Source of the DNA: Thermoflexus sp.
Lineage (GTDB): Bacteria; Chloroflexota; Anaerolineae; Aggregatilineales; Aggregatilineaceae
Assembly: GCA_020724465.1 (NCBI GenBank)
Contig: DYGX01000012.1
Span: 1-64,000, forward strand
DNA length: 64,000 nt
Direction of reading: 5' to 3'
Part shown: piece after piece, positions 1,045 through 1,679 of the stretch
Numbering within the stretch: position 1 is the first letter of the stretch
How the letters are laid out: each line of letters begins with the position of its first letter
Translations under genes and position numbers: made by a program
The notes under the pieces: generated by a model
What the model was told of the DNA's origin: nothing
What the model saw: only the letters and a program-made list of their open reading frames with translations
Databases searched by the model: none

Positions 1045-1190
1045 CCGGGCACTCATATGCGCGCTTTGCCCCCGCGCCAGAATCTAAGAGATCACTGAGA
1101 GTCCAGCCCGGCTGCTTGCATCCGGCTGCTGCGCCGATTATGTTTGAAATCAACGCGGCTTGCCATCAGAAACATCGGCCAGGTGACGCA

Positions 1191-1679
1191 ATGACCCCAG
1201 GTCCTTCTCAGTCCGAACTGGCGCCCGATTTTGCCCTGCGCGACACGCAGGGCCGCGTGGTGCGCCTGAGTGATTTTCGCGGCAATCAGCATGTGGTGCT
1301 GGTGTTCAACCGCGGCTTTCAGTGACCGTTCTGCCGCCGGCACATGGCGCAGTTGCGTCACGACTACGCTCAGTTTACCCGCAGGGGCGCAGAGGTGATC
1401 GTCATCGGCCCGGACGACGAAGCCGCCTTCCGCGCTTTCTGGCAGGAGCACAAGCTGCCGATGATCGGGCTGGCCGACCCCGAACACCGTGTGGCCGATC
1501 AGTACGGCCAGCGCGTCAGACTGTTGAAGTTCGGGCGGCTGCCCACCGTGATCCTTGTGGACCGAAAAGGGCGGATGCACTTCCGGCACGACGGCAGCGG
1601 GATGCACGATATCCCTCCCAACTCGAAGCTGCTGGCTCTGCTCGATGCCCTGAACGAGCGCGCAGACTCGTCCGGTTAG
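1191..1679 (+). CDS. Peroxiredoxin/redoxin-like protein, probable selenoprotein read through an in-frame TGA
   Basis: The frame from ATG 1191 (preceded by AGGTGA) runs to TAG 1677-1679 with a single internal TGA at 1323-1325 (codon 45). Both halves belong to one AhpC/TSA-type thioredoxin-fold protein of 162 residues. Before the TGA is the usual APDFALRD...VRLSDFRG...VVLVFNRG segment; after it comes PFCRRHMAQLRHDY. In related redoxins the motif is RGxWCPFCRR, so the TGA sits exactly where the peroxidatic cysteine is expected, giving a U45-P-F-C48 active site. A short hairpin just after the TGA could be the bacterial SECIS. This placement argues for selenocysteine rather than a nonsense mutation. 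The likely role is reduction of peroxides or disulfides. The alternative is a broken gene, with the downstream half restarting at ATG 1344. Confidence 0.8.
1323..1325 (+). other. In-frame TGA, predicted selenocysteine codon
   Basis: This TGA occupies the position of the first cysteine of the CPFC redox motif in the redoxin-like gene. The reading frame stays open and conserved on both sides. Confidence 0.78.
1331..1352 (+). promoter_or_regulatory. Candidate bacterial SECIS hairpin
   Basis: CTG at 1331-1333 pairs with CAG at 1350-1352. After a single bulged C, CGCC at 1335-1338 pairs with GGCG at 1346-1349. The seven-base apical loop GGCACAT begins with GG, as bacterial SECIS loops usually have a G in the first two positions. 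The loop begins 14 bases after the TGA, slightly closer than the usual range, so this is a plausible but not ideal SelB target. Confidence 0.5.

What the first reader, a model, noticed from the sequence alone, without database searches (positions are those of the whole stretch)
1191..1679. Peroxiredoxin-like selenoprotein with U-P-F-C active site
The internal TGA replaces exactly the first Cys of the CPFC redox motif, both flanking halves are family-conserved in one frame, and a short GG-loop hairpin follows the TGA. Selenoproteins of the redoxin-like UxxC type are known, but the gene would be split or truncated in automatic annotation.
Basis: partly seen in the sequence, partly recalled or inferred. 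Interest (0 to 1): 0.85.

Follow-up and report, generated by a model that had tools for sequence, protein, structure and literature searches.

The report
Peroxiredoxin-like selenoprotein with U-P-F-C site
An apparently broken bacterial gene is really an intact selenium-containing redox enzyme whose internal stop codon is read as selenocysteine; the kind is already known, but in the annotation of one related, fully sequenced bacterium the gene is cut short.

Summary
Confirmed. The ORF at 1191-1679 carries one in-frame TGA (1323-1325) at residue 45 of a 162-aa AhpC/TSA-type redoxin, giving U-P-F-C. The host genome has selA-selB-tRNASec in one cluster, a selD that itself has an in-frame TGA, and one tRNA with a UCA anticodon, tRNASec. 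All 80 kept named-genome loci have TGA at this site. The conserved signal is a hairpin TGGCGC-AGTT-GCGTCA at 1345-1360: among 108 distinct Sec members 90 keep all six pairs, stems change in step, and Leu is TTG in 100 of 104 cases. The closest Cys homologue found lacks it. The protein fits the known 'Prx-like thiol:disulfide oxidoreductase' UxxC selenoproteins; it lacks two marks of true peroxiredoxins. New here: an almost Sec-only subfamily, mainly in Chloroflexota, below NCBIfam cut-offs wherever a score was printed, and listed in a Thermomicrobium roseum record only as a 42-aa stub. Against: in the window's RNA a competing fold is stronger unless the bases next to the TGA are left out. Substrate and partner are unknown.

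The parts
1191..1679 (+). selenoprotein gene, 162 aa, UPFC redoxin (AhpC-TSA fold)
   Evidence: translation with TGA=U; PF00578 E 9.7e-27; alignment with 14 relatives
1181..1186 (+). AGGTGA, possible ribosome binding site 4 nt before ATG 1191 (an in-frame ATG at 1140 is an alternative start)
   Evidence: read from sequence; inference
1323..1325 (+). TGA codon read as selenocysteine, residue 45
1332..1334 (+). Cys48, partner thiol of the UxxC motif
   Evidence: invariant in the 15 rows of A1
1345..1360 (+). bacterial SECIS-type hairpin TGGCGC-AGTT-GCGTCA, loop 1351-1354, 25 nt between TGA and loop
   Evidence: conserved letters, compensatory pairs, synonymous constraint; not the lowest-energy fold of the window RNA unless the first 12 nt after the TGA are left out
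1542..1544 (+). Pro118, at the Pro position of TlpA-type proteins and where Bcp and PrxU of the same genome have Arg
   Evidence: invariant in the 15 rows of A1; aligned

Best explanation
The gene encodes a selenoprotein of the Prx-like UxxC kind. Shown by sequence: an intact reading frame with one conserved UGA at the active site, a conserved downstream hairpin, and a complete set of Sec-insertion genes. Inferred: SelB with GTP and Sec-tRNASec binds the AGUU-loop hairpin 25 nt past the UGA and inserts Sec at residue 45. The protein folds as a thioredoxin/peroxiredoxin-type domain in which the selenol of U45, just before the long helix, attacks a disulfide or peroxide, and C48 resolves it as a selenenylsulfide that a thioredoxin-type reductant then reduces. 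I take it to act mainly as a selenol-based thiol:disulfide reductase or reductant-dependent peroxidase in redox homeostasis. The confidence given is for selenoprotein and Sec insertion; the redox role, as stated, I hold at about 0.6.
For: tRNASec at C24:125729 with anticodon UCA, adjoining selA and selB; selD; the only UCA anticodon among 46 tRNA genes. TGA at the site in 80 of 80 kept named loci. Hairpin: of 108 distinct Sec segments kept by the filter 90 have 6 of 6 pairs; loop AGTT in 94 and GGTT in 2; on 104 distinct windows 95.5% of cells pair against 19-63% for slid controls, 12 double-change cells, shuffles reaching the observed value 0, 0, 1 and 0 of 500. The Leu codon that overlaps the loop is TTG in 100 of 104 Leu cases, against 60 of 391 Leu codons elsewhere in the same segments. 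Of 46 genomes with a strong TGA-bearing match 46 have selB, against 311 of 400 overall, P 4e-6. PrxU of the same genome has a GGCGGC-AGTT-GCCGCC hairpin after its own Sec codon. Model pLDDT 86.5; fold matches Bcp, AhpC2, ResA and AhpE.
Against: No protein or selenium was measured. In the window's own RNA the AGUU hairpin is not the lowest-energy fold if bases next to the UGA may pair (-15.2 for the alternative, -7.9 for the hairpin alone): its pair probability is 0 with the UGA included, 0.05-0.07 from nt +1, 0.28-0.31 from nt +10, and 0.88-1.0 only from nt +13. Twelve of 108 Sec members have a GC[CTA]T loop; 6 of 108 have 4 and 2 have 3 of 6 pairs. A first covariation count with a seventh pair outside the stem was weaker (63, 75, 5 and 0 of 500 shuffles). 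Two genomes with TGA at the site had no selB match, G104 and G318, both 88-89% complete. The copy of G322 (L191) has a further in-frame TAA. No Rfam match. Substrate and reductant rest on motif and fold only.
Confidence: 0.96

Rival explanations
1. Nonsense mutation or sequencing error in an ordinary CPFC redoxin (pseudogene or artefact).
For: Table 11 gives two short ORFs, 69 and 111 aa.
Against: TGA at the same codon in 108 distinct segments from many assemblies, including a finished isolate record; conserved protein sequence on both sides.
Confidence: 0.01
2. UGA is read as another residue (Cys or Trp), or the second half is made on its own from ATG 1344.
For: An ATG lies at 1344-1346, at the foot of the hairpin, and opens a 111-aa ORF.
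Against: No second UCA-anticodon tRNA among 46 genes; TGA ends 22 of 41 coding-like ORFs in the window; the hairpin is absent in the Cys homologue L172; the Met is Leu, Ile or Val in other members, so it is not a required start; the second half lacks U45 and the strands before it.
Confidence: 0.02
3. Selenoprotein, but a true peroxiredoxin: peroxide is reduced by C48 in the peroxidatic position and U45 serves as resolving residue.
For: C48 aligns with the Cys of the TxxC motif of own-genome Bcp and of AhpE (alignment to 5c04); fold matches include Bcp and AhpE.
Against: The Thr position of Bcp is taken by U45, and the Arg position of Bcp and PrxU by Pro118, invariant in 15 of 15 rows of A1. 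The UxxC arrangement is thioredoxin-like, as PMC1088965 says of its Prx-like family (passage).
Confidence: 0.2

Closest known systems
Prx-like thiol:disulfide oxidoreductase, UxxC selenoproteins (PMC13188914 Table 1; 'Prx-like' in PMC1088965; 'Prx-like 1' pfam00578 UxxC in PMC2398784)
   Same: PF00578 homology, thioredoxin-like UxxC in place of the Prx TxxU motif, bacterial Sec; PMC1794560 lists the family in Syntrophus aciditrophicus and Geobacter, and our scan finds this gene in a Syntrophus MAG (L096).
   Different: The reference protein WP_010940744.1 was not available for direct alignment. In the GOS set Prx-like 1 has more Cys than Sec forms (2,740 to 225), whereas in our capped searches the only close Cys form seen is L172.
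PrxU, TxxU peroxiredoxin (NF040737)
   Same: Fold; Sec; same AGUU-loop type of hairpin in the host's own PrxU (L161).
   Different: Sec sits three residues later, at the TxxU position (TFVUPTE), and the Arg is kept; our protein scores 24 bits against a cut-off of 270.
SelL-related redox proteins (NF040769); SelL itself is UxxU (recalled)
   Same: Best NCBIfam model, E 1.4e-23.
   Different: 83.5 bits against a cut-off of 120, matching only residues 11-106; one Sec, not two.
ResA/TlpA thiol:disulfide oxidoreductases
   Same: CxxC/UxxC position and the Pro before the last strands.
   Different: No signal peptide or anchor seen by eye (no predictor was run); below the ResA cut-off (53 against 170).

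Membership tests
Bacterial selenoprotein | in-frame TGA at a position that is Cys in homologues | tested here: met
   Cys in L172
Bacterial selenoprotein | selA, selB, selD and tRNASec in the genome | tested here: met
Bacterial selenoprotein | bSECIS: 4-16 bp upper stem, 3-9 nt loop, G in the first two loop positions, 16-37 nt from UGA (consensus as printed in PMC13188914) | tested here: met
   6-bp stem, AGUU loop, 25 nt; no SECIS program was run; not the lowest-energy fold of the window RNA unless the first 12 nt are left out
Bacterial selenoprotein | selenium in the protein | not testable with these tools
   needs mass spectrometry or 75Se labelling
Prx-like UxxC thiol:disulfide oxidoreductase | PF00578 homology with UxxC instead of TxxU | tested here: met
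Prx-like UxxC thiol:disulfide oxidoreductase | direct similarity to the reference WP_010940744.1 | not tested
   sequence not at hand in these tools
Peroxiredoxin (true Prx) | TxxC/TxxU with Thr, and the conserved Arg (its catalytic role is recalled) | tested here: not met
   U45 at the Thr position, Pro118 at the Arg position
SelL-related (NF040769) | score at or above the curated 120 bits | tested here: not met
   83.5 bits for the window; 62.8-78.0 for L172, L173, L177, L182 and L109; for the other 14 members of A1 one search shows only that they match, best E 5.1e-26, not their scores

The most novel reading that the evidence does not exclude
This is an almost Sec-only UxxC subfamily, centred on Chloroflexota and spread to Desulfobacterota, whose hairpin (C-G-closed AGUU/GGUU tetraloop, fixed 25-nt spacing) is a clade-wide SelB recognition code shared with PrxU. 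In part of the family it works with an alpha/beta-hydrolase encoded just upstream, as a two-gene redox detoxification unit.
Probability: 0.3. Interest if true: 0.5.

Novelty: new member of a known kind. Interest (0 to 1): 0.35.

Why it matters
It shows a real selenoprotein where standard translation gives two fragments, in a subfamily that scores below the present NCBIfam models wherever a score was printed and that is cut at the TGA in at least one finished record. The strict conservation of the hairpin over 108 distinct segments, with compensatory changes and a Cys homologue without it, gives a clean data set for asking what SelB reads in bacteria outside E. coli.

Tried and rejected
Rfam scan of 1000-1900 at E up to 1: no match. 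Megablast of the gene against plasmids: none. A cellular partner from gene neighbourhood: around the window only synteny shared with some near relatives (pseudouridine synthase, CN_hydrolase), and an alpha/beta-hydrolase upstream in part of the distant members; not decisive. First covariation count, with a seventh pair (nt 19-36) that is not part of the stem, was weaker: shuffles reaching observed 63, 75, 5 and 0 of 500; the six-pair count is. Neither corrects for relatedness. The regex accepts only U or C at the site, an Arg four residues before it and an APxF-type start, so it dropped some members (for example L176, Sec with the hairpin, and L184, Cys); the counts of 108 and 6 are for what it kept. 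The 80 named loci were fetched with two peptide patterns, one of which contains HMAQL, so conservation of those amino acids, but not of their codons, is partly selected. Papers: of PMC13188914, PMC1088965, PMC2398784 and PMC1794560 I saw passages found by term search, no whole text; PMC12013277 held none of the four terms looked for; the others were seen in listings with the start of the abstract only. Whether this subfamily has been described apart from Prx-like UxxC in general I cannot say beyond searches, in whose listings I saw no such paper.

Full report
Observation. Window 1191-1679 (+) reads as 162 residues with one internal TGA at 1323-1325, residue 45, in RGFQUPFCRRHMAQL. Under table 11 it falls into a 69-aa ORF (from TTG 1116) and a 111-aa ORF (from ATG 1344). 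Read through, it matches AhpC-TSA PF00578 over residues 10-129 at E 9.7e-27 and Redoxin PF08534 at 1.5e-22.

Apparatus. The host genome (4.42 Mb, 56 contigs, completeness 98.99) has tRNASec at C24:125729-125823, 69.6 bits, found also by ARAGORN with anticodon UCA; selA at C24:122393-123709, 550 bits; selB at C24:123743-125578, 331 bits; so selA, selB and tRNASec lie in a row. selD at C56:50760-51695, 374 bits, itself has an in-frame TGA. ARAGORN on the 44 loci that hold the 45 RF00005 matches and the tRNASec gives 46 distinct tRNA genes, of which only tRNASec has UCA. TGA ends 22 of 41 coding-like ORFs in the window, picked by a base-composition rule, so it is a stop by default here.

The host. 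It is a Chloroflexota bacterium: contigs of its relatives have the same lengths and places as named records (G010:C28, same family, and JAFGHR010000113.1, Anaerolineae bacterium; G038:C127, same order, and JARKOQ010000254.1, Aggregatilineales bacterium). The placing in Anaerolineae, perhaps Aggregatilineales, is my inference from these titles.

Homologues. In 61 genomes (own plus 60 relatives) 16 have a close member (52% identity or more); 15 reach the site and all 15 have TGA there; the sixteenth (G001, 90% identity) is cut by its contig end at residue 53. A scan of named genomes confirmed 274 relatives and kept the best 80; all 80 have TGA at the site, 74 by regex and 6 that the regex missed but whose printed translation shows U. 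By their titles 65 of the 80 are Chloroflexota lineages; the other 15 include Desulfobulbus alkaliphilus DSM 24258 (an isolate, L109), Syntrophus (L096), Smithella, Deltaproteobacteria, GN15, KSB3 and Actinobacteria records, nearly all MAGs, where misbinning is possible. selB is present in the genomes of L109 and L096. Of 400 genomes of the phylum, 52 have a match at E 1e-25 or better. Of these, 46 have a TGA-bearing match at E 1.4e-35 or better and all 46 are in the selB-positive list, against 311 of 400 (hypergeometric 4e-6; compared by eye, on the same handles). Of three further genomes with TGA at the site in weaker matches, G371 has selB, while G104 and G318, 88-89% complete, show none. 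The copies of G250 and G322 have a further in-frame TAA; that of G322 lies inside the domain (L191), so it may be decayed or misassembled.

The hairpin. Six pairs at nt 20-25 and 30-35 after the TGA with a loop at 26-29, window 1345-1360: TGGCGC-AGTT-GCGTCA. Among 108 distinct Sec segments kept by the filter (of 114; the other 6 are Cys), 90 have 6 of 6 pairs, 10 have 5, 6 have 4 and 2 have 3; loops are AGTT 94, GGTT 2 and GC[CTA]T 12. Stems change in step: TGGCGC/GCGCCA, TCGCGC/GCGCGA, TGACGC/GCGTCA, TCTCGC/GCGAGA. On 104 distinct windows 95.5% of cells pair, against 19-63% with slid partners; 12 cells have changes on both sides; 0, 0, 1 and 0 of 500 shuffles reach the observed paired fraction, double changes, types and covariation score. 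Relatedness is not corrected for. The codons are constrained beyond the protein: Leu at +10 is TTG in 100 of 104 Leu cases, against 60 of 391 Leu codons elsewhere in the same segments, and Ala at +8 is GCG in 101 of 104. The closest Cys homologue found, L172 (G292, whose genome still has selB), has CPFC and no such hairpin; the 6 Cys segments have 3-4 of 6 pairs and none has an AGTT loop. In the same genome as the window PrxU (L161) carries GGCGGC-AGTT-GCCGCC after its Sec codon at a shorter spacing (17 nt), and selD carries GGCGCAG-GTC-CTGCGCC.

Against the hairpin: in the window's own RNA an alternative fold including the UGA is better (-15.2 kcal/mol) than the AGUU hairpin alone (-7.9). The hairpin's pair probability is 0 with the UGA included, 0.05-0.07 from nt +1, 0.28-0.31 from nt +10 and 0.88-1.0 from nt +13, that is, once 12 nt are covered as a ribosome might cover them (inference). 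Over the 104 windows folded from nt +10 the mean probability of its central pair is 0.83, above 0.5 in 87.

The protein. In A1 U45, C48, FNRGF, HMAQLR and P118 are invariant in 15 of 15 (U printed as C). AlphaFold2 on A1: pLDDT 86.5, pTM 0.84, U45 just before helix 46-64. Foldseek: Bcp 9a4d, 3hjp, 3drn (TM 0.81-0.82), AhpC2 (0.86), AhpE (0.81-0.83), ResA (0.66-0.74), TM by query length, among the 50 rows listed. Aligned with own-genome paralogues, U45 falls on the Thr of the Bcp TxxC and on the first Cys of TlpA-type CxxC; C48 falls on the TxxC Cys; P118 falls on the Arg of Bcp and PrxU and on the Pro of TlpA types. That this Arg is catalytic in Prx is recalled; the AhpE R116A entry 4xih appears. 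So it works most like a thioredoxin-type UxxC oxidoreductase on a Prx-like scaffold. Substrate, reductant and physiological role are inference.

Comparison (passages only). [quoted passage not shown] PMC2398784 lists Prx-like 1, pfam00578, UxxC, 225 Sec and 2,740 Cys forms; PMC1794560 lists Prx-like thiol:disulfide oxidoreductase in Geobacter and Syntrophus aciditrophicus; PMC13188914 keeps the family in its 2026 table. This is a member of that kind on every feature I could test; direct alignment with the reference protein was not possible. In NCBIfam the best model is NF040769 SelL-related, 83.5 bits against 120 for the window; all 15 members of A1 match it, though one search prints the score only of the first, and five more proteins scored 62.8-78.0.

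Annotation. In Thermomicrobium roseum DSM 5159, record NC_011961.1, a 39.6% identical member has TGA at 545392-545394 and the hairpin CTGGCGC-AGTT-GCGCCAG; the gene table has only WP_012643006.1, 'hypothetical protein' 545266-545394, 42 aa, which ends at that TGA. That table is the one PLSDB distributes and is incomplete, so the original record may also hold a second fragment. The frame overlaps an upstream alpha/beta hydrolase gene. In the 80 named loci an alpha/beta hydrolase of the L117 type (E below 1e-80) is found in 18, ending within about 110 nt of the match start in 14 of them, and a weak one downstream in L086; a second type (PF12695) is found in 14 loci. Flanks end at contig ends in some loci, so these are lower bounds. 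The window has a pseudouridine synthase and a CN_hydrolase as neighbours.

Verdict. It is a genuine selenoprotein gene (0.96), a new member of a known kind. Interest is modest: the value lies in the clean SECIS data set, the almost Sec-only subfamily and the annotation gap.

Noticed in passing
L161 (G000:C10:208049-208447): A Sec peroxiredoxin of PrxU type (TFVUPTE) in the host genome, with an AGTT-loop hairpin after its TGA.
   Followed up: partly
L162 (G000:C38:53337-53711): A further redoxin with in-frame TGA, GUPPC motif, with a possible GTG-loop hairpin that shows only in the shortest stretch folded.
   Followed up: partly
L017 (G000:C56:50760-51695): SelD of the host is itself predicted to contain Sec (SACAGU).
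   Followed up: partly
L230 (NC_011961.1:545266-545734): Thermomicrobium roseum megaplasmid: family member listed only as a 42-aa hypothetical protein ending at the Sec TGA.
   Followed up: yes
L052, L056, L071, L076 and others; L230: Alpha/beta-hydrolase gene directly upstream of the selenoprotein gene in part of the family, overlapping it in T. roseum.
   Followed up: partly
L182 (G220:C22) and L178-L180, L183, L184: A sister redoxin group with both a Sec form (NUMQC) and several Cys forms (TCPQC and like), a natural Sec/Cys pair set.
   Followed up: no
L146, L147, L150, L151, L153-L159, L190: Sec members with a GC[CTA]T loop in place of AGTT and weaker pairing, perhaps a shifted hairpin.
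   Followed up: no
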